A stretch of 64,000 nucleotides of DNA. Origin: Nautilus pompilius (lineage: Eukaryota; Mollusca; Cephalopoda; Nautilida; Nautilidae). This document shows, piece by piece, positions 8,385-62,794 of this stretch. Both the position numbers and the translations under genes were made by a program. The DNA lies in the NCBI GenBank assembly GCA_018389105.1, contig JACATO010002729.1, positions 62,001-126,000 on the forward strand. The letters run 5' to 3'. Positions within the stretch are counted from its first letter, which is position 1. Each line of letters begins with the position of its first letter. The notes beneath the pieces were generated by a model, which was not told where the DNA came from, did no database searches, and saw nothing but the letters and a program-made list of their open reading frames with translations.

Positions 8385-8540
8385 TACACCAATATTTACA
8401 GCCGAACAACCCTGATGAAGGGATCATCGTGCCACGGTTATCCGGTAGGGAGAGCATCCTTCACCACGAGAGGCCCAGCACATCGGACTTCGGCAAGGAA
8501 AACCCTACTGGAACTCTTCATTTTTAGACGTAAGAGATAA
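8385..8540 (-). mobile_element. SINE-like element, family A (3' part)
   Basis: The piece around 8455-8530 contains CACGAGAGGCCCAGCAC, then CGGCAAGGAAAACCCTACTG, GAACTCTTCATTTTTAGA. The same string of words recurs at 14.69 kb (CGGCAGGGAAACCTGCCCTG, GAACTCTTCGG) and at 42.53 kb (CACGAGAGGCCTAGCAG, CAGGGAAATCTCTGCTAGAG). In those two copies a tRNA-like end follows on the right, which puts the promoter on the minus strand. This copy lacks a clear tRNA-like end, so it is probably truncated. The family assignment rests only on comparison inside the window. Confidence 0.6.
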
Positions 8541-11188
8541 TCAGAATAGCCTAAGGAAACCCACCCAACTGCCTGGTGACAACAGAAGAGAAGAAACAGA
8601 GCCAAGTACTCTTTTATCCGCTTCTTTATGCAAGTCGAACGAAAATATCTGTACTCCGTCAGTAAATAGCACCTATAGTTTGTCTTTAATTACAGTATAA
8701 ATGTTATGTGTAGACGGACTTTACTCACAGTCGGTCAGGGTGTCCTGAAGAAACAAAAGATTGGTTTTACGGGGCATTTACATGATATTAAATATGAAAT
8801 AATAAAGTTAATGTTTACTCCGCCGCATTAGATACTGTTTTTGGTTTTTTGTCACACGTACAGAACACAATCCAGGAAACCTTAGAAATAATAGCTAACA
8901 GCAGCAAAGATATCTCAGGGATACCCATTCATATCCATTCCAGTTGGTCAGGTCCAAACTTCTACTCCCAAATATGGAACTATCATATTCTTAAAGTCTT
9001 CCAAAAAGGCTGCTTATTTACTCAATAAAGCCCATCTTTACATGACATTTACGCGCATTTATTTCTAAAGCTGGATTTTACACAATATTTGTTGACTGAG
9101 ATATCAATTGGCCTTCTAGGACACTAGAATCTGATTTTTCAAACCATTTAGGAAAAAAAGGTTACATGGCATACTTGATATTTAGCTTAGAATTGGCGGG
9201 TTCGCAACTTTTGAGTTGTATGGTTGCCATGGTAATGCAAAAACATCACATCTTTCCCAGAGCTCATTAATTTGTTTCTTTCCCTTTTAATTTAAAGATA
9301 ACCGTTGTTGTACTGCCATCTGTTTTTTTTTTGTTATTGAATTTTTTGAAATTTTTCAATTCTCAAAATTTGACATTAAAATTTAGAAACTAATAAATAT
9401 AGCAAAATGTTCTCAAGACATTGAATTTGGCTTCGCGCTCAGACGGCTTTTCCAGAATATGTAGGCATGTGAATGACAGGTCAAGAAAGTTTTACATGCC
9501 AGAATATAATAAATACCTTAAAATACCACGTTTCTGGGAAACGCCCTAGAAAATACGGGTAGACATGGCACCATAGATCCCATGCGGTTGTTTGCAGCTT
9601 CTATTCCACTACAGCAGCTGAAAATCCACTAACGAGTCAAGTAGATATCCAAAAAGCTGTATTGCACGGCAGATCCAAATAAGAAGGTATCGCGAGTTGC
9701 AACTCCAGAAAAGTCCTTAAAACACTTTTCTTTCTTTCTATCCGATGCCAGCATTAGAGAGGGAAAGAGCAAAACATGGATGCTTAACTTCGTTCTTTTT
9801 TTTTTTTTCTTCTCAGCTTGCTTTGCTTTTAATTCTTTACTCCGTTTCAGTTGTCTCTTTACAGGCTTTTATTAACCCTGAGCTCGTTTGGAAATCATCC
9901 AGCTCTGCATCGATGTCGTTAAGAAATAATATAACTGCTTACATTGATATTTTCACGGAACAGAGCGCACTAGTGACAGCCTGATGAAGGCCTGTTTGTC
10001 CGCTATTTCCATTGGGCAGGAACTCAGCAACTGTCAGGCAGGAACGAATAAGACCCAGACATCTTCCGGTCGACCGCAGTTCTCTCCAAGCGAATATCTC
10101 TCGTACAGACGCAGGCAGGAGTGAAGCCGGGGACCGTCGAGAGTGCAAGAATCTAGGCTTTATTTAACTTGATAGGTTTAATTAGTTTAAACACTTTTAT
10201 TTTTCTTTACTGTAAACACGTGAAAATGAGAAGTTAAATGTTTTTAAAGGAAAGTAATTAATTACGGGAGAACGGTTGAGAGCCCTGACAGCAGAACATA
10301 TCGGTTAACCTTTTACTGTTGTTTCCACGAAGAGCGTTGGAAATAATTAAATATAGACGACAGCAAAATGATTTTACATATTTTTTGCCATTTTATTTAT
10401 GCATAAACAACCGTCTTCTTAATCAGATCTACGCTCAAAGCAGAAGTTTTTTAATAATTAAAAAAAAATTGTGTTTTAAACGATCTCCAAAAATCTGGGC
10501 AGACGTTTTGTCTTTTGTTACTATGGGAGAAATAAATATTAAAGCTGCAGGCCTTGATCGACTGCGGGGGCCAACCTTTTTATTATTATTATTATTATCT
10601 GTGCGTGTTTAGAGCCAGCAATCATGTCGCCTCGTGGCTGCTGAATTACTGCATCATTTCTGATGCTCCGAGCGCACCTGTCACTGACAAGTTGTACGTG
10701 CGAGGTCAGGGTTCAAATGAATCAGGCGCAATCATAGAATTTACATTACACATCTCTTTTAAAAATTGTATTAAAAAAGAACAAAATGCGTCGCATCGAA
10801 AAGCACCATATCTAAGAGAGGCTGCCTGACGTTAAATCCTTAACTTTTCTCCAAGCACCACTCTTTCGTTTTACACAAATCGTTCTTCATACAAAGTTAA
10901 TTAATGTTTTTTTTTAGAAAAAAAAAATGTTATCCTTAATTCATTTCATTTTGGCCGCGTTATGTTCCCTTAAAAAAATACACAACAGGATTATCTTCTC
11001 TTAACTTTATTAAACACCAGTCAAACTTTACGACAAAGAGTCAAATTCTGGGTCGCTCACGCGAGAGAAACAGTTAAATCGTCTTACAGTCCGGTGTCTA
11101 ACGTCAGATCGATTTGACACAGAAAGAGAGCAGAGGATTACACAAAAAAGATCTTGTAAAAAATGACAACTTTATTTTTTCTGCCTGC
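8541..11188. other. Anonymous non-coding stretch
   Basis: No gene or mobile element recognised. It contains short homopolymer runs, a small (ATT)n near 10577-10597, and a 79-codon open frame (9745-9984) whose middle is coded by a poly-T run. Nothing suggests coding. Confidence 0.5.
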
Positions 11189-11363
11189 CTCTCTCGCTCT
11201 CTCTCTCTCTCTCCATCATCTCTCTCTCCCCACCTCTCTCTCTCTCTCTCTCCATCATCTCTCTCCCCCCTCTCTCTCTCTCTCTCCATCATCTCTCTCC
11301 CCCTCTCTCTCCATCATCTCTCTCTCTCCATTCTCTCTCCCTCTCTCTCTCTCTCCATCATCT

Positions 11364-11443
<80 letters not shown>

Positions 11444-11480
11444 ATCTCTCTCCCCCCTCTCTCTCTCTCTGCCTCCTCTG
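11189..11480. repeat. (CT)n tract with CCATCATC spacers
   Basis: Nearly pure CT repeat about 290 bp long. The word CCATCATCTC is inserted six times, usually followed by TCTCCCCCC, which makes a loose minisatellite inside the microsatellite. A pure CT run of about 70 bp occupies 11371-11439. The Ser/Leu-rich open frames here (up to 124 codons) and the Arg/Glu-rich ones on the other strand come from the repeat. Confidence 0.96.
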
Positions 11481-13769
<2,289 letters not shown>

Positions 13770-21670: not shown

Positions 21671-23150
21671 GGTTGTTACCATACAGTCACACTGCTGCTA
21701 CAGTTCTGCAGTACACGTTACCGATGTCACTACCTAGTAACATTAACTATACGGTCACACTGCTGCTACACCTGGTAACATTTACTATACAGTCACACTG
21801 CTGCTACAGTTCTGCAGTACACGTTACCGATGTCACGTACCTAGTAACATTAACTATACGGTCACACTGCTGCTACCACCTGGTAACATTTACTATACAG
21901 TCACACTGATGCTACAGTTCTGCAGTACACGTTACCGATGTCACTACCTAGTAACATTAACTATACGGTCACACTGCTGCTACACCTGGTAACATTTACT
22001 ATACAGTCACACTGCTGCTACAGTTCTGCAGTACACGTTACCGATGTCACTACCTAGTAACATTAACTATACGGTCACACTGCTGCTACACCTGGTAACA
22101 TTTACTATACAGTCACACTGCTGCTACAGTTCTGCAGTACACGTTACCGATGTCACTACCTAGTAACATTAACTATACGGTCACACTGCTGCTACACCTG
22201 GTAACATTTACTATACAGTCACACTGATGCTACAGTTCTGCAGTACACGTTACCGATGTCACTACCTAGTAACATTAACTATACGGTCACACTGCTGCTA
22301 CACCTGGTAACATTTACTATACAGTCACACTGCTGCTACAGTTCTGCAGTACACGTTACCGATGTCACTACCTAGTAACATTAACTATACGGTCACACTG
22401 CTGCTACAGTTATACAGTACACGTTACCAATGTCACGTACCTAGTAACATTCACTATACGGTCACACTGATGCTATACCTGGTAACATTTACTATACAGT
22501 CACACTGCTGCTACAGTTCTGCAGTACACGTTACCGATGTCACTACCTAGTAACATTAACTATACGGTCACACTGCTGCTACACCTGGTAACATTTACTA
22601 TACAGTCACACTGCTGCTACAGTTCTGCAGTACACGTTACCGATGTCACTACCTAGTAACATTAACTATACGGTCACACTGCTGCTACACCTGGTAACAT
22701 TTACTATACAGTCACACTGCTGCTACAGTTCTGCAGTACACGTTACCGATGTCACGTACCTAGTAACATTAACTATACGGTCACACTGCTGCTACACCTG
22801 GTAACATTTACTATACAGTCACACTGCTGCTACAGTTCTGCAGTACACGTTACCGATGTCACTACCTAGTAACATTAACTATACGGTCACACTGCTGCTA
22901 CACCTGGTAACATTTACTATACAGTCACACTGCTGCTACAGTTCTGCAGTACACGTTACCGATGTCACTACCTAGTAACATTAACTATACGGTCACACTG
23001 CTGCTACACCTGGTAACATTTACTATACAGTCACACTGCTGCTACAGTTCTACAGTACACGTTACCGATGTCACTACCTAGTAACATTAACTATACGGTC
23101 ACACTGCTAGTAAAATTTTACAGTAAACGATACCGATGTCACGGTATCCA
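21671..23150. repeat. Young satellite array, 106-bp composite unit, 13 copies
   Basis: Units start at ACAGTCACACTGCTGCTACA at 21683, 21789, 21897, 22003, 22109, 22215, 22321, 22496, 22602, 22708, 22815, 22921 and 23027. Spacing is 106 except 108 once, 107 once and 175 once. Each unit has a 68-bp half (start ACAGTC) and a 38-bp half (start ACGGTC). Both halves share the first 20 bp and the last 18 bp; the short half lacks 30 bp from the middle. The 175-bp interval holds an extra 68-bp-type half at 22389. Copies differ by only a few bases. The array ends in a degraded half unit at 23095-23150. Because 106 is not a multiple of three, the open frames through it are artefacts. Confidence 0.97.
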
Positions 23151-32015: not shown

Positions 32016-33174
32016 ACAGCATATTACCGGATACTGTTTGAAGAGGAAATGGTTTACTTGTATAATAATGGTTGCTTCTGGTAACCGAAAATGATTGTTT
32101 ATATATTATATAGGAACACATGAACATGGGAGTTTTGTTTATAGTGTAGGAAAGTCTGTCCGCGTATCAACCACGCCCTTAGGTGGTGCAAAATTGTGTC
32201 AAGGAACATTTGAGAAGGGCAGTCAAATTACCACTCGCAGAACCATTATTCGAGTAGGCGATCGGATAACCGGGTCCCAACTTAGTGATAGACAAACGGT
32301 GGAAGGAAGGAAAGTTGTCTGATATTTCTCCTCATTTAGGAGCTCTTTTATAACGTAGTATTAGCAACTACTTTAGTTTTCTTGGTACGAGACAAGAAAC
32401 CATATGAAGCTGAACAAGGATCTATCTGCTGATCTGGCTTATTTTTAAACTATTTTTTCTGATAGCTATAATGGCTACTGTTGGAAAACTAAGTGTATTT
32501 GTTTGCAGATTTGCTGTTAAAAAAATACTTTTTTCCTGTGAAGTCAATTTCTAATGAACTCCCTTAGTAATTGTTGATAACCAAAACATTTTTTCTGCCA
32601 CCAGATAATTTTATTAGGTTCTGTTCCCACTCAGATGTCTCTTGGATTAAACAAAAATTCTGTTAGTGTTTTTTAATTGCTGAATAGTTTGGCTGTTTAA
32701 ATCTCAAATGAATTTTTTTAAACCTACGCTGGAAAACGTGATGTGATTCTAGAGTAGATATTATGCAAATGTCTTAACTATATTCAGAAAGAATCTGGAA
32801 CACAGATGTGAAATGGACATTCTTAAATTGATACTGCACTTTAATTACATTTTAAGTCATTAATAACTATCTATTTTGCGAATATTCCCTTTGCAAAATT
32901 TTACATTATCACAATAGTGCAATATATAAGGACATCTTTAATGGAGGATTCTGTCATTTCAGAATAAGCAACACTGTAAATTCTTTGACTAAATAGTCTA
33001 TTCTAAACCCTTTCTAGTGTCAGCCTGCTTTATAAAAGGTGGGAATCCAGTGCTTACTTTAGAGGTTACAATGCTGAACTCTAATTAAAATGTTGAAAGA
33101 TCCTCTCTCTGTTGTAGAAAATTTCTGTTTTTAAATTAGACACTCGCTTTAATTTCTCTGTGGTCTGATAGAGA
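32016..33174. other. Anonymous AT-rich stretch
   Basis: No gene or mobile element recognised before the GT-rich VNTR. Confidence 0.5.
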
Positions 33175-33323
33175 TATGTGTGTGTGTGGTGTGTGTGTGT
33201 GTGTGTGTGTGCCTGATTGTGTGCGAGAGTATCGGTATGTATGTGTGTGTTATGGTGTGTGTGTGTGTGTGTGGTGTGTGTGCCTGATTGTGTGTGAGAG
33301 TATCGGTATGTATATGTGTGTTA

Positions 33324-33356
<33 letters not shown>

Positions 33357-33870
33357 CTGATTGTGTGCGTGATTGTGTGCGAGAGTATCGTATGTATATG
33401 TGTGTTATGTATGTGTGTTGTGTGTTGTGTGTGTGTGTGCCTGATTATGTGTGAGAGTATCGGTATGTATATGTGTTTATGGTGGTGTGTGTGGTGTGTG
33501 TGGTGTGTGTGTGTGTGTGTGCGTGATTGTGTGCGTGATTGTGTGCGAGAGTATCGGTATGTATATGTGTGTGTATGTGTGTGTGTGTGCCTGATTGTGT
33601 GCGAGAGTATCGGTATGTATATGTGTGTTATGTATGTGTGTGTTGTGTGTGTGTGTGTGTGTGTGCCTGATGTGTGTGAGAGTATCGGTATGTATATGTG
33701 TGTTATGTGTGTGTGTGTGTGTGTGTGTTGCCTGATTATGTGTGAGAGTATCGGTATGTATATGTGTGTTATGAGTGTGTGTGTATGTGTGAGTTTATGT
33801 ATGTATGTATGTATGTGTAAGGGTTTGTGTGTATGTTTGTGTATGTGATGTGAGAGTGTGTGAGTGCGGG
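33175..33870. repeat. GT-rich VNTR with a conserved core, eight copies
   Basis: Eight copies of a core close to GCCTGATTGTGTGCGAGAGT followed by ATCGGTATGTATATGTGTGT are separated by (GT)n of variable length. GAGAGTATCG occurs at 33225, 33296, 33381, 33453, 33547, 33603, 33678 and 33744, with spacings from 56 to 94. The cores differ by one to three bases, while the GT spacers account for nearly all length change. The 186-codon Cys/Val-rich reading frame (33288-33848) is the longest in the window and is purely a product of this repeat. Confidence 0.95.
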
Positions 33871-35050
33871 TGTGTTTGACGCTTAGGTCAGAAATTTAGA
33901 ATTTTTGGCATGCCATCTAATCACGTGCTGCGATGGAAACGTGATTAACATTGGTAAGCTTATGGAAATTTTTAAAATCTATAAACCTCATTAAAATTTA
34001 TCGATTTGTCTTTTCAGTATTAGAAATTACTGATTTCTGAACCAACAAAAGTAAAAAAAAATTCTATGTCAAACGTCAGCTGTCAGAAATATAATGGGAT
34101 TTTCCGGATATTCTTCAGATCGCATTGACTACAAAGTGTCGTCTGACCGAATCCACCTTTCATCCACCTTTTCCTTCTTCTGATTTTGCTTTTTTTTTAC
34201 TTTAGAAGGTGAGTTGTTCGTGATATTTTTTTTTGCTTTTTTCATTATTTATTCCAAGAGAGAAACCGTAACTTTGTCTCTGCAAATTGTGAGGACAGTT
34301 GATGAGAAAAAGTTATCAGCATCTCCGCCGACTGTTGGAGGAGGATGCCGCTCTAGGAATTGATGATGTCATTGCTGACAGCCAGTACTCGTCTAAAATA
34401 AACACCTGAGGGCAAAAAATCTGCTTTGAAAAATTCGTTTCTACTCCGACGCCTGGTAATGATTTTTTTCTGCTTTTCTCTTCAGTAGCCTGAAGGCCTT
34501 TTCTCTGTTTTCAGCGACCACGCCGCCGGAAGGCCGTCAACTCCACACGGGATATTTCAATTTAATACAGACCCTTTGTCTGGAAAACACACAGACACGA
34601 TCTGAGGAAATGAATGTCAAAACCTTAATCTCTTAAGGTAATTAAGAAGTTTCCTTTTAAGTTTTATACGAAGCCCAGTCGACGTTTACCTAATTTCTAA
34701 TTACTATAAGAGAAGTAAGTTAAATAACCTCGTTGTAGCCCTGCTGGCTTTTCTTCATTCCATCTTGCAAACTCACCCCCCCCACAGTTTACTGCTCATT
34801 AAAGATTTACCTGAGCATATTTGAGTAAATCACTAATTTTATGAGTTTTACCTACACTGAAGTCGCTCCAAAGAATGTAAGTATAGTGATTATAGATCAA
34901 GAGAGAAAGGTGGTTGTTATAAAGATTATGCAAGTGTCACTAATAAATATAGAAAAATGTGCGGTGCTGCTTTTCTGACCGAAATTTCTCAATTTTAAAT
35001 TGAAACATTCTTATATGCTCGGTTTCCTTACTGAAAGTAAGAGCAAGAAA
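33871..35050. other. Anonymous non-coding stretch
   Basis: No gene or mobile element recognised. Confidence 0.5.
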
Positions 35051-35096
35051 TTGAGAGAGAGATGGACAAAGAAACAGAGAGACACAGAGAGAGAGA

Positions 35097-35170
<74 letters not shown>

Positions 35171-35212
35171 GAGGACAAAGAAACAGAGAGAGAGAGATAG
35201 GACAACGGAAAC

Positions 35213-35246
<34 letters not shown>

Positions 35247-35249
35247 GAG

Positions 35250-35287
<38 letters not shown>

Positions 35288-35299
35288 AGATGGACAAAG

Positions 35300-35365
<66 letters not shown>
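35051..35365. repeat. (GA)n tract with GGACAAAGAAACAG spacers
   Basis: About 310 bp of GA dinucleotides. A GGACAAAGAAACAGAGAGA word or a close variant appears four times (near 35063, 35173, 35199 and 35291). Long open frames on both strands (Arg/Glu-rich or Ser/Leu-rich, up to 178 codons) are artefacts of the repeat. Confidence 0.96.
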
Positions 35366-36134
35366 CATAAAAAGTCCACTTGAACTGTTTTCATCAAAAT
35401 AACACATTAATCCAATATCAGAACGAAGCCCTTGGTTAAGAAGACAGATAATCCTTAAGCGAATTTTGGCAAGCAATTTATCTGTAATTTGGGATTTTCA
35501 GCTGTCACTGCGGTGTTTATCTAAATGAAAGTTTTTCAGTGTTTGATTAAATGATTTTTATTTAATGCATTTGTGGGCTTTTATGTTTGTCCGTTTCTTT
35601 TGGTTACGTGGAATTATTCAGAGGTCAGGGCTTTCATCACTATTGCGATTCGCGGTAATTATTCAGCCAAAGTAAGCCGAGGACTTGGCGATGAACAGGG
35701 GGCTTGTAATAAAATAATGCTTGTAGACAATATTCTACCTGAAAGGAGATGCTCAGAAGTCTATTTTGATATTTCAGCAGGCCTTCGTCGCCCCATACTT
35801 GTTCTTGTATCATTTAATCCCAAATGGTGCGTGCTTTTCTAGATCAGCCTCCACAAACAGTACGAACATGGTCTTAGTAAAGTTGACGAGTTTTGGAAAA
35901 TCTTCTACTATTTAATTTAATTATCCCCGACATGTTAACTCTTCAAAATGTGTAGGCTTGGCAACATCCATAGAGCATAAAAACGTGCAGGGGGGAGATT
36001 TGATATTTTAGAACCGTTTATTTAACTTTCGCTAACGTACGTACTCACCCGCCACCAAAAGGTTCATCGTGCAGACTCTCGTACAACGATCGTTTTTTAT
36101 ATTAAAGCTCTGTTTTGGACGCCTAATTCGACAG
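35366..36134. other. Anonymous non-coding stretch
   Basis: No recognised feature. The 89-codon frame at 35573-35842 (+) has no known family signature. Confidence 0.45.
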
Positions 36135-36215: not shown

Positions 36216-36633
36216 AATCGGTTGGCGATGAGGGGAGGTTCGCTCAGAAACAGTCAAAATGTGGTCGTGAACAAAGACCAAAGCCCCAGCTTCCCTGCAG
36301 CTGGTCGTGTTTGCGCGGGAGGTGATAGAGTTCTCAAAGACGGCGCTGCCAGGAGATATCGCTGGTGTATACAAAACATGTAAGGCGAGAGTCGGAACCA
36401 CTGTAATCTTTTATGAAGTCAGACTTGTGGTGATTCGTTTGCAGCTAGAATTCTGCCTGCTAGCGATTTGGCTCGGTTCCATAATCTTTGATCTACTTGA
36501 AGCCGATAACCAGTTTGTTTTTTATCCTCCCCCCCCACTTTTGCCATTTTCCTTCTTTTCTCATCTTTTCGGTGTTTGTTTTGCAGCTCCATTGTGAAAA
36601 TGATTTGAAACACTGCGTTATTCGTAAACAAAA

Positions 36634-36780
36634 TGAGAGAGAGAGAGAGAGAGGAGAGATGAGAGATGAGGAGAGAGCAGAGAGAGAGATGACGTCATTA
36701 CACAGTGAGATGACGTCATTACACGCGAGAGCGCGAGATTATAACGTCAGGAGAGAGAGAGAGAGAGGCAGAGAAAGAGT
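36634..36780. repeat. (GA)n tract with TGACGTCA palindromes, second locus
   Basis: GA repeats enclose GAGATGACGTCATTACAC twice (palindromes at 36690-36697 and 36711-36718) and a worn third site, TAACGTCA, at 36742-36749. TGACGTCA is the full cAMP-response-element palindrome recognised by CREB/ATF bZIP proteins. The flanking words (ATTACA, GGAGAG) are the reverse complement of those at the 53.6-kb locus, so the three loci form one family. Repeat identity is seen; any regulatory role is inference. Confidence 0.9.
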
Positions 36781-42475: not shown

Positions 42476-42722
42476 AGATAACCTCTCTGCGTTAAAGACA
42501 GCCGTAGTGCCGTGCCAGAGAGCAGCTATCCTTCGCCACGAGAGGCCTAGCAGTTCTAACTTAACAGGGAAATCTCTGCTAGAGCTTTTATATTTTAAAT
42601 GTGGGAAGAATCCCACACGACTGGATGGTAAAAGAGGTCGAGAAGAAACCATGCCAGAGAGGTACTCCAAACCGAACGAGCCCCGACTGGGACTCGAACC
42701 CTCAGCCTTGGCAGTCAAATAG
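42476..42722 (-). mobile_element. SINE-like element, family A, best-preserved tRNA end
   Basis: The left part has CACGAGAGGCCTAGCAG, CAGGGAAATCTCTGCTAGAG and TTTTAAATGTGGGAAGAA. The middle has GAGAAGAAACCATGCCAGAG. The right part has GACTGGGACTCGAACCCTCA, then GCCTTGGCAGTCAAAT. GGGACTCGAACCC is a near-perfect reverse complement of the B box with T-arm, so the element is oriented to the minus strand. Short complementary open frames (71 and 83 codons) over it are chance frames. Confidence 0.7.
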
Positions 42723-53369: not shown

Positions 53370-54024
53370 TCCTCTCTCTCGCAGTCTCTCCTCTCTCGCT
53401 CTCTCGCGCTCCCCCTCGCTCGATCTCTCCCCCCTCTCCTCTCTCTCGCTCCCCCCGCTCTCTCGCGCTCTCTCTCTCTCGTCTCTCTCTCTCTCTCGCT
53501 CTCGGCTCTCTCTCTCTCGCTCGGCAGGTTCTCGCTCTCTCTCTCTCTCTCGTCATCTCTCTCTCTTCATCTCTCTCTCTCTTCATCTCTCTCTCTTCAT
53601 CTCTCTCTCTTCATCTCTCTCCATCTCTCTCTCTCTCTCTCCTGACGTCATATCTCTCTCTGTAATGACGTCATCGCTCTTCCTGTACTGACTTAATCTC
53701 TCTGTAATGACGTCATCTCTCTCTCTCTCTCTCTCCCTCTCTCTCTCCCTATCTCTTATCTCTCTCCTTTCTTTCTCTCTGTATGACGTCATCTTCTCTC
53801 TCCTGACGTCATATCTCTCTGTACTGACGTCATATCTCTCTCTGTACTGACATCACTCTCTTCTCTCTCCTGACGTCATCGCTCTTCCTGTACTGACTTA
53901 ATCTCTCTGTAATGACGTCATATCTCGCTCTCTCTCTCTCCCTATCTCTCTCTCTCCTCTCTCTCCCCCCCTCTCTCTCTTTCTTTCTCTCTGTACTGAC
54001 GTCATCTCTCTCTCTCCTGACGTC

Positions 54025-54094
<70 letters not shown>
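53370..54094. repeat. (CT)n tract with ten perfect TGACGTCA sites, main locus
   Basis: The left quarter is CT repeat broken by CGCTC, CCCCC and CTTCATCTC words. Perfect TGACGTCA palindromes start at 53643, 53666, 53708, 53784, 53804, 53825, 53871, 53913, 53997 and 54018. Worn versions (TGACTTAA at 53689 and 53894, TGACATCA at 53848) fill the series. They come in two contexts: CTCTCCTGACGTCAT and CTGTAMTGACGTCAT (M is A or C), often alternating. The right end is a pure CT run of about 65 bp. TGACGTCA is the consensus CRE for CREB/ATF dimers; a cluster this dense is a potential binding platform, but no gene is visible beside it. Confidence 0.95.
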
Positions 54095-54099
<5 letters not shown>

Positions 54100-60528: not shown

Positions 60529-62425
60529 CAGCCTCTCTGATTTCTACGCATCTTTTTGCCCTTTTTTAAACAAATTTTAATCCAAACTGAAGAAGTAGCA
60601 GACAGGTTCTGATTAGAACAGACGTCGATTTTCATCGAACGCGTGAAATTCCATTTTAATTAGCTGACTCCCTCCACCCCTCTGCAGTTACTTATAATTT
60701 AATTCATCTTTTCGGTTTCGCGCCGTCATTCCGAATGGGACTCAAACAGCCAACATGTGAGACAGCGGCGGGTGTCCGCCCCGAGGCTCGGCTCGCACGT
60801 CACGATATTTTAAAATGTCGCCAGCGCGACGCGATCTTGAATTTCGGTGCCATCCCGGACCGACGGCAGTCCATCAACACCCCACCCCCCCGAATCTGAG
60901 TGACATCATATATAATGATGAATAAATATCCCCAGTTCAGGGCATCCATCGCTGCTTCGAACTATTTTCTGCGCGAAGTTGGAGATCTTCAATGGAATTT
61001 TTATTAAATCAAATCAGCTGTTTATCTGACCAGGATTGCATTAGCACGACAACGAATTACCGAGCGGAAATGTCTCCAGGGCTCTGTTCTCGGAAACTCA
61101 CGTAGAAATTTTTTTTTTTTTTTGAAGTCTGGTGGAATGGTTAACGGTTTTCAAGAAAAATAAGGCTGAATCTCCATCTGTTAGACTACGTTAATCTAAC
61201 CGTATCAGAAGTTGGTTTTTATTAAGAATAGCCAACGTAGAGGGCGAACAGACAAGTTCCAAACAGAGGTAAACCTTGAGGTCTGCGATTGCAATCTCGC
61301 TTCACTATCCTCAATATAACTTACTGTAAAGAATAACAAAGATGGTTTATGCCATCGCTTCGAATTCCTCGCTACCAGACAATTCTGCAGTTTTGAAATC
61401 ATTTCTGGCTTTCGATTAGTTTCGTTTATAGCAACCTTCTTGTAGATGCTACTCTTGTCCGTTCGTTTAGGATGCTGTATTCTCCATTCCTTTACTCTAC
61501 CGTCTTGTATTTCCCGTTAAAACACCGAACCTGTAGGAGAGCCCTTTCGTCAAATCTGCCGTACATCTCGGGAGCAAGCAAATACAAAACAAGATCCCCT
61601 TTATTCTGACCGTGTTCATTTCAAAAGACTTTAAATTTCCCATCTATGCGCTTGCTTTTAAAAAATCGAAGCCAAATTAAAAATTTTTTTAACACTTCGA
61701 TTTAAAGTAAAGATCTCCAAGCGAATTCCTACTTTAAGAAAATACGAACCGCTAAAGTTAAAAGTTTTTTAATTTTTCAAAACTGCTCTCCATGTACAAC
61801 GCAGCTGATCTTAATTATATCCAATTAATTATGAATCTAAAGAAGGTCATCGGTTTTTTTTTTTCCTTTATGGAACTCAGGGAACGAAATTACGCTAATA
61901 AATTCGTTTTAATTAGACTATAAAATCTCTCATCAGCCGCACCTCGCATTAATACCAGCTCGGAATGTTTAACGAGATAATTATGGTTGTTCCTCTCCTC
62001 GATACTCCGCCAGGGCGGAGAATTCAAACTCTTTCTGAAATGTTTTATGAGTTATTACTGAGTAAATTTATTTCTGGAAAACTTAGGGCCGACCATAAAA
62101 TCGGTTCTTTGAGTCTGTGATGTTGGCTGGTTGTTTTTATTTTACAATCGTGAGGCAAATTTTCATTTTTTAAAAAACATCTCGACCAAGAAAATGCAGA
62201 CAGTGCATCTCCGTCCCCGTTGCTGGTTCCGCGTGCTTTTGTTCGGAAGATGGGGGGGACGAGGGGATGCTTTTGATTGGTCTATGTACCCCACAACTGT
62301 TCGCGTGGCCGAGAATGGTGAGGAGACTTCGTGGACGATAGAAATGTTTCTTGTTATAGACCCAAATCAAAATAAAAACAGTTTATAGAAGAGAGAATTA
62401 TCTCTCTGTGTGCGTACAAGTCTGC
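60529..62425. other. Anonymous stretch with one possible inverted tRNA-like piece
   Basis: At 60733-60800 the words GAATGGGACTCAAACAGCC and CGGGTGTCCGCCCCGAGG could be a worn inverted SINE head (GGGACTCAAAC against the inverted B box GGGATTCGAAC). A GC-rich patch continues to about 60.9 kb. The rest is AT-rich with poly-T runs and no gene. Confidence 0.4.
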
Positions 62426-62491
62426 ATGAGAGAGAGAGAGAGAGAGATGACGTCAGGAGAGATATGACGTCAGTACAGAGAGAGAGAGAGC
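62426..62491. repeat. (GA)n tract with TGACGTCA palindromes, third locus
   Basis: GA repeats enclose two perfect TGACGTCA sites (62448-62455 and 62465-62472) in the contexts ATGACGTCAGGAGAG and ATGACGTCAGTACAGAG. These are exactly the two alternating contexts of the 53.6-kb locus read on the other strand, so this is a short inverted copy of the same composite repeat. Confidence 0.93.
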
Positions 62492-62794
62492 TTCCGTATG
62501 TGCTTTAGTGCATCTTCCGAATTCAGGTGACATCTGCAGTCTCACCGAGAAGGTTTCCTGAACAGAAACAAAATGAAAATGGTGCATAGTGTCAGCTAAA
62601 CATGGCGGCGAAGAGATCGGTCTCCGGGGGAGTGCGCCGGAAAAATCTACGTTCATCCGGATAAATGAATCATGCCAAATGAAGATCTTTATGCGATAGC
62701 GGTACGAAAACCGGCCATAAAATCTCTCGTCCACTCGGTAGGGTGGGTTTTTATGTCAATTGCTCGATCAGACTCGTTTATGTCCGCTCTTTTC
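62492..62794. other. Anonymous stretch
   Basis: A minus-strand frame of 93 codons begins here and runs into the GA tract; it has no known family. No other feature seen. Confidence 0.45.

What the first reader, a model, noticed from the sequence alone, without database searches (positions are those of the whole stretch)
53630..54030. Dense array of perfect CRE palindromes embedded in a CT microsatellite
Ten exact TGACGTCA sites fall within about 380 bp, plus three worn ones, in two contexts that often alternate (CTCTCCTGACGTCAT and CTGTAMTGACGTCAT). An 8-bp word is expected about once per 64 kb by chance. Either a CRE-containing spacer has been amplified by slippage and unequal exchange, or the palindrome is kept by selection as a CREB/ATF binding platform. 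The perfection of the 8-mer beside freely varying flanks hints at the second, but replication-related causes are possible.
Basis: partly seen in the sequence, partly recalled or inferred. Interest (0 to 1): 0.72.

Follow-up and report, generated by a model that had tools for sequence, protein, structure and literature searches.

The report
Genome-wide repeat carrying CRE palindromes
The cluster of perfect TGACGTCA sites is one copy of a repeat that recurs inside CT-repeat tracts across this genome and grows by local copying; the sites do not look strongly protected by selection, so a role as a gene-control platform is possible but not shown.

Summary
In detail: ten exact and three worn TGACGTCA sites lie in 53643-54025. 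It is not a local oddity. The same words recur, inverted, in two more GA tracts of the window and at 13 loci in 200 kb of another contig. TGTAMTGACGTCAT occurs 29,193 times in the 728-Mb assembly against 32 for its reversed control; TGACGTCA 93,914 times against 19,528 for a control palindrome. Loci share the repeat but no flanking DNA (16 loci). Each has its own tandem pattern, and units resemble those of the same locus most. Against this, genome-wide copy counts show core changes 2.2 and 3.5 times rarer than flank changes at two matched letters; by locus the gap is small. Best reading: a dispersed compound micro/minisatellite amplified by slippage and unequal exchange, CRE-CRE hairpins a plausible aid. 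How it disperses, and the organism, are unknown.

The parts
53372..54096 (+). CT microsatellite tract that holds the array
   Evidence: Tandem Repeats Finder row 53372-54096, unit CT, 352.5 copies, 64% matches
53630..54035 (+). CRE-bearing minisatellite array: 10 exact and 3 worn TGACGTCA in CTCTCC- and CTGTAM- contexts; ~205-bp duplication
   Evidence: (period 205, 1.9 copies, 87% matches)
53666..53811 (+). first copy of the duplicated block (sites 53666 to 53804)
   Evidence: alignment with 53871-54025: 0 of 40 core and 5 of 106 flank mismatches, 11 gap columns outside the cores
53871..54025 (+). second copy of the duplicated block
36626..36780 (-). second member: GA tract with TGACGTCA at 36690 and 36711 and a worn TGACGTTA (minus strand, 36742-36749); left contexts GTAA, GTAA, CTCC
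62424..62493 (-). third member: GA tract with one dyad GTAC-TGACGTCA-TATCTCTCC-TGACGTCA (sites 62448 and 62465)
   Evidence: exact 31-mer at contig C2545:124446-124476 = window 62446-62476

Best explanation
This is one locus of a dispersed compound micro/minisatellite family. Its unit, (CT)n-GTAM-TGACGTCA-T-(CT)n, often paired with a CTCC-TGACGTCA-T unit, sits in CT tracts (shown). At each locus it is multiplied into that locus's own tandem pattern by slippage and unequal exchange, so that spacings often differ by the 2-bp CT unit (pattern shown, mechanism inferred). Nearby CREs on one strand can pair as hairpins of about 8-10 bp while the CT spacers cannot, which probably stabilises slipped intermediates and gives misaligned strands a register (folding computed, effect inferred). 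The CRE words recur because they belong to the unit and are re-copied, not mainly because selection mends them. How the unit reached thousands of loci without shared flanks is not shown; exchange, conversion or template switching between CT tracts is my first choice, and a mobile element with CT ends is possible.
For: Genome: TGTAMTGACGTCAT 29,193 against 32 control; TCTGTACTGACGTCAT 16,313 against 0; TGACGTCA 93,914 against 19,528 for control palindrome ACTGCAGT. Association, in 264 kb: 30 of 70 CT tracts (7 or more perfect copies) have a CRE within 150 bp; GT 0 of 14, TAA 1 of 20, AT 2 of 12, CAT 1 of 1. Local amplification: locus-specific spacings (mostly 17, 19, 21, 23, 25, 27, 29; longer periods 38, 53, about 92) in 197 units at 17 loci; within-locus similarity (60 units); ~205-bp duplication. 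No shared flanks at 16 loci. Decay like the flanks in the sample. Mutant cores amplified, e.g. 8 copies of TCTGTACTAACGTCAT at C7:23228-23654 and 11 A3 mutants at C52. Hairpins: z -3.3 to -7.4 for 10 of 10 stretches folded.
Against: Genome-wide copy counts show fewer changes in the core than at the same letter in the flank (A: 539 against 1,193; G: 1,389 against 4,897), so some constraint on the core, or some need for it in amplification, is not excluded. The 200-kb sample is not typical: it has about five times the genome-average density of TGACGTCA (136 in 200 kb; 93,914 in 728 Mb). The exact dyad 31-mer, 8 times in the 264 kb beside 48 of the 16-mer, is listed only 55 times in the genome, on 18 contigs, beside 16,313 of the 16-mer, so the dyad is a regional form and not the genome-wide unit. 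Recurrence at many loci without shared flanks is not explained by slippage alone.
Confidence: 0.7

Rival explanations
1. Selected bZIP platform: arrays are kept because CREB/ATF-type proteins bind the CREs, perhaps with a GA-binding factor on the tract, as enhancers or as a genome-wide sink for bZIP protein.
For: The core is a textbook CRE, and both CRE and GAGA words are reported as conserved upstream words in flies and worms (PMC551538, passages). Copy counts of core mutants are 2.2- and 3.5-fold below flank mutants at matched letters. Isolated CREs also exceed chance: 4 outside tracts in the window, the highest of 96 same-composition palindromes, mean 0.65.
Against: Core and flank decay alike in the sampled DNA; by locus the genome-wide deficit is small and reverses for G>A/T (25 core against 10 flank loci); mutant cores form arrays of up to 11 copies; the non-CRE left flanks recur as faithfully.
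Confidence: 0.12
2. Mobile element: a short non-autonomous element with CT ends, or the end of a larger one, carried the unit to thousands of sites, where it was then amplified.
For: The same words stand on different contigs and in both orientations with unrelated DNA close on both sides. Retrotransposons that spread microsatellite families are known (RTE in Lepidoptera, PMC2887409, abstract).
Against: No shared body beyond about 40 bp, and no shared flank in 1.5 kb on either side at 16 loci; no target-site duplication evident by eye (not tested); a short-5'/long-3' CT asymmetry that I suspected was not borne out (p 0.22). The exact dyad is confined to 18 of 2558 contigs, which looks more like regional exchange than like one seed spread genome-wide; I lowered this rival from 0.20 to 0.18 for that.
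Confidence: 0.18
3. Recombination-driven repeat: CRE in the form ATGACGTCAT is the M26-type meiotic hotspot motif, and bZIP binding raises break and exchange rates in the tract, so that the motif promotes its own amplification.
For: Every core followed by T carries ATGACGT on the GA strand (10 of 10 intact array sites); M26 (ATGACGTCAT) is a hotspot needing Atf1-Pcr1 in fission yeast and is reported active in budding yeast (PMC3534124, title and passages). Core-mutant copies are under-represented by copy number.
Against: Mutant cores amplify into arrays of up to 11 copies. No recombination data. The same paper reports no significant genome-wide association of M26 with meiotic breaks in budding yeast.
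Confidence: 0.08

Closest known systems
Compound (interrupted) microsatellites and minisatellites
   Same: Tandem, locus-specific units of mostly 17-29 bp in a CT tract, 2-bp spacing steps, local duplications
   Different: The same interruption, a palindromic 8-mer with two fixed left contexts, recurs in tens of thousands of copies across the genome
Microsatellite-associated DNA families, e.g. RTE-derived in Lepidoptera (PMC2887409, abstract)
   Same: Repeat-linked sequence shared by many microsatellite loci of one genome
   Different: Those loci share a transposon-derived flank; here only words inside the tract are shared
CREB/ATF cAMP response elements
   Same: Exact TGACGTCA, followed by T at 10 of 10 intact array sites
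   Different: Dense CT-embedded arrays; no conservation above flanks in the sample; no binding evidence
M26-type CRE recombination hotspot (PMC3534124, passages)
   Same: ATGACGT in each core followed by T, and full ATGACGTCAT where the left base is A
   Different: No recombination measurement; mutant cores also amplify
Baculovirus homologous regions with clustered bZIP sites (recalled; only the reference title of Landais 2006 seen)
   Same: Clusters of bZIP-type sites in repeats
   Different: Here chromosomal CT tracts; no match in phage records (a collection of phages only), and viral-contig pattern matches are lone sites without CT runs

Membership tests
Compound microsatellite/minisatellite | Head-to-tail units within or beside a simple repeat | tested here: met
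Compound microsatellite/minisatellite | Local amplification: units more alike within than between loci | tested here: met
   0.816 against 0.714, 0 of 1000 permutations (60 units in 18 bins)
Compound microsatellite/minisatellite | Length polymorphism between individuals | not testable with these tools
   one assembly only
CREB/ATF binding platform | Exact CRE sequence, clustered beyond chance | tested here: met
CREB/ATF binding platform | Core conserved above its flanks | tested here: inconclusive
   equal in the sample; copy-number deficit genome-wide at two letters, small by locus
CREB/ATF binding platform | Protein binding or open chromatin | not testable with these tools
   no such data
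Transposon-derived microsatellite family | Shared non-repeat flank or element body | tested here: not met
   16 loci, 1.5-kb flanks, blastn: of 8 hits left after dropping low-complexity and near-self hits, 7 join array edges to arrays and 1 is a 69-bp match elsewhere
Transposon-derived microsatellite family | Target-site duplications and empty sites | not tested
   looked at by eye only; no relatives of this genome are held
M26-type recombination hotspot | ATGACGT heptamer | tested here: met
   10 of 10 intact array sites are followed by T, hence ATGACGT on the minus strand
M26-type recombination hotspot | Raised meiotic breaks | not testable with these tools
   no data

The most novel reading that the evidence does not exclude
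A self-promoting repeat: bZIP binding to CREs in CT tracts opens chromatin and raises breakage and exchange, spreading tens of thousands of CREs through the genome and in turn making a genome-wide sink or regulatory network for CREB/ATF-type factors. The copy-number deficit of core mutants fits, and nothing here excludes it.
Probability: 0.08. Interest if true: 0.85.

Novelty: new variant of a known kind. Interest (0 to 1): 0.5.

Why it matters
One eukaryotic genome carries about 94,000 CRE palindromes, nearly five times a control palindrome, and at least 29,000 of them have the fixed TGTAM left flank of this CT-embedded family. If they are bound, this would reset how many CREB/ATF targets such a genome has; if they are not, it is a large natural control for what a perfect transcription-factor site does without selection. 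It also warns that motif density alone, even ten perfect 8-mers in 380 bp, does not show function.

Tried and rejected
Viral origin or viral hr-like region: three IMG/VR pattern scans gave 0, 33 and 10 stretches, each with one pattern match and no (CT)6 or (GA)6 run anywhere in it, so they look like chance. The bacterial/archaeal scan gave 2 such stretches, where my arithmetic expects about 7 by chance. No phage match. Coding or RNA gene: 6 stop-to-stop ORFs of 150 aa or more, several of them repeat translations; no Pfam match over cut-off for 10 ORFs out of the 185 kept (three weak matches under cut-off); best PDB match of one ORF at E 0.41; no Rfam match in the window at gathering scores; no tRNA by the bacterial model. 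Shared transposon flank: none found. Short-5'/long-3' CT asymmetry, suspected by eye: not supported, and the boundary rule was crude. Helical phasing: spacings look like 2-bp steps, not multiples of 10.5 (read, no formal test). Organism: Pfam PF00379 (Chitin_bind_4; its link to arthropod cuticle is recalled) gave 0 matches in the own genome, but it also rang in none of 14 control genomes, so this is weak evidence against an arthropod. Literature: six module words gave two papers in the PMC library, each with one occurrence of one word, on unrelated subjects by title (listing only); searches found nothing; some searches gave listings, from which I opened four papers. A search for the distribution of TATCTCTCCTGACGTCAT to follow this up did not complete.

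Full report
Observation. The window holds 18 exact TGACGTCA sites against 0.79 expected from dinucleotide shuffles. Ten lie at 53643-54025 within a CT tract of 53372-54096; three worn copies lie among them. Shuffles of the tract alone give 0.0055 sites on average, 1 at most in 2000. The ten are not ten independent events: a ~205-bp duplication makes four pairs of intact sites copies of each other, and the pair 53689/53894 carries the same worn core.

Beyond the coordinates. Two GA tracts at 36626-36780 and 62424-62493 carry the same words on the other strand: of five cores there, four are exact and one is TGACGTTA, and all five use the same two kinds of left context. The four remaining exact sites (4533, 12680, 16212, 58998) have neither CT context nor these flanks. 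Other CT tracts in the window have their own repeated interruptions, for example CCATCATC six times at 11184-11481, so amplification of an interruption is not peculiar to the CRE. DNA outside the tracts is not shared by the three loci.

Genome scale. The window is C2545:62001-126000 of an unnamed 727.6-Mb assembly. TGTAMTGACGTCAT occurs 29,193 times, nearly equally on both strands, against 32 for the reversed control. TCTGTACTGACGTCAT occurs 16,313 times against 0. TGACGTCA occurs 93,914 times against 19,528 for the control palindrome. The tool calls these counts whole but also warns that counts of repeats may be lower bounds. In 200 kb of contig C1 there are 136 TGACGTCA, in 12 multi-site clusters and 13 singletons; 2 of the singletons are single modules in GA tracts. 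That stretch is about five times richer than the genome average, so it is a convenience sample. With about 8 intact sites per locus (136 at 17 loci), the excess over the control palindrome suggests of the order of 9,000 loci (inference from a rich sample). In C1 plus window, 30 of 70 CT tracts have a CRE within 150 bp, against 0 of 14 GT, 1 of 20 TAA and 2 of 12 AT tracts; a single CAT tract also has one.

Anatomy. In the sample the dominant left contexts are GTAC (99) and CTCC (41), and the dominant right contexts TCTCTCTCT (51) and TATCTCTCC (33), among 197 units at 17 loci. Units were accepted with up to 2 core mismatches and CT-rich flanks, so this is not an unbiased catalogue; it misses three exact sites, among them 36711 of the window. 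A dyad, GTAC-TGACGTCA-TATCTCTCC-TGACGTCA, stands at 12 places on C1 and one in the window. It is not the unit of the whole family: its 31-base form occurs 8 times in the 264 kb held, beside 48 of the 16-mer, but only 55 times in the genome, on 18 contigs, beside 16,313. C1 and the window's contig therefore share a regional form. Spacing is 17 within the dyad and otherwise mostly 19, 21, 23, 25, 27 or 29. Loci have their own longer periods, e.g. 23, 38, 53 or about 92 bp (38 and 60 by Tandem Repeats Finder in L095). Units are more alike within a locus (0.816) than between loci (0.714), 0 of 1000 permutations reaching the observed value (60 units). Among 16 loci, 8 flank hits were left after dropping low-complexity and near-self hits; 7 join array edges to arrays and 1 is a 69-bp match elsewhere.

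Is the 8-mer protected? Between the duplicated blocks, 0 of 40 core and 5 of 106 flank positions differ (p 0.32), with 11 gap columns, all outside the cores. Among 18 window units, 6 of 144 core cells are changed, while the left flanks show only the two forms; since the GTA units are defined by GTA, the figure of 0 changes in 36 GTA cells is partly circular, but no third form exists. In 264 kb, with 48 intact TCTGTACTGACGTCAT, single mutants number 23 over 8 core and 20 over 8 flank positions, or 13 and 14 when collapsed to loci. For the CTCC-side consensus they number 8 over 8 core and 10 over 10 flank positions (5 and 8 by locus). For the right-flank consensus they number 6 over 8 and 25 over 9 (4 and 15 by locus), 15 of the 25 at the last C, where the CT repeat simply runs on. 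Genome-wide, beside 16,313 intact, core G mutants are 1,389 and flank G mutants 4,897; core A mutants are 539 and flank A mutants 1,193. These speak for some deficit in the core. They count copies, not events; of the first 100 flank-G places listed, 67 are G>C, which restores the CT repeat. Collapsed to loci on the contigs covered by both capped lists, they are 26 core against 34 flank (A, C1-C123) and 27 against 33 (G, C1-C45); 25 against 10 for G>A/T alone, and 3 against 23 for G>C alone. Two core and two flank positions out of sixteen were counted genome-wide. Mutant cores form arrays of their own, up to 11 copies. I conclude that amplification does not need an intact CRE and that strong purifying selection is not seen, while a weak effect is open.

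Mechanism. Single-stranded DNA of the arrays folds so that nearby CREs pair as hairpins of about 8-10 bp around CT or GA loops, z -3.3 to -7.4 for 10 of 10 stretches folded, with 0 of 200 shuffles as stable in each. Slippage and unequal exchange, with CREs as register and hairpin stems, explain the local patterns; that step is inferred. Dispersal between loci is unexplained: no shared flank, and target duplications were not tested. Exchange or template switching between CT tracts is my first choice and a mobile element the main rival.

Known relatives. Compound microsatellites and minisatellites match in anatomy. Transposon-borne microsatellite families (PMC2887409, abstract) match in dispersal but fail on the shared flank. 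CRE and GAGA words as conserved regulatory words (PMC551538, passages) and CRE as the M26 recombination hotspot motif (PMC3534124, passages) are leads, not tests. In the PMC library six module words gave only two single-occurrence hits in papers on unrelated subjects (listing), so I found no description of this family there; papers outside that library were not searched.

Limits. The search machine was mostly busy, so only nine genome searches were answered.

Noticed in passing
window 21676-23108: Long minisatellite with a 106-bp unit and higher-order periods of 281 and 387 bp, 96-98% alike in the best rows.
   Followed up: no
window 11184-11481: CT tract with six copies of CCATCATC; it could be a deletion derivative of CTCTCCTGACATCATC (TGAC lost), a word seen on C1.
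   Followed up: partly
window 4533, 12680, 16212, 58998 and C1 singletons: Isolated TGACGTCA outside CT tracts also exceed chance: 4 in the window, highest of 96 same-composition palindromes (mean 0.65); 17 singletons in 264 kb, 2 of them modules. They may be ordinary CREs.
   Followed up: partly
G000, 18 contigs including C1 and C2545: The exact 31-base dyad is listed 55 times on 18 of 2558 contigs, 7 of them within C1:1-200000, while its 16-base half is spread widely; this may mark one chromosome or region.
   Followed up: partly
window 8447-8542 and 42517-42612: A 98-bp dispersed repeat pair, 71% identical, apart from the CT family.
   Followed up: no
window 35053-35374: GA tract with its own recurrent interruption, CTGTTTCTTTGTCC on the CT strand, a parallel case without CRE.
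   Followed up: no
window 33174-33875: TG-rich compound minisatellite of about 700 bp, 71-bp unit over its first part, open on both strands over most of its length, likely chance.
   Followed up: no
G000 C1 (L076-L095): The first 200 kb of C1 have 136 TGACGTCA, about five times the genome-average density; such repeats may cluster regionally.
   Followed up: no
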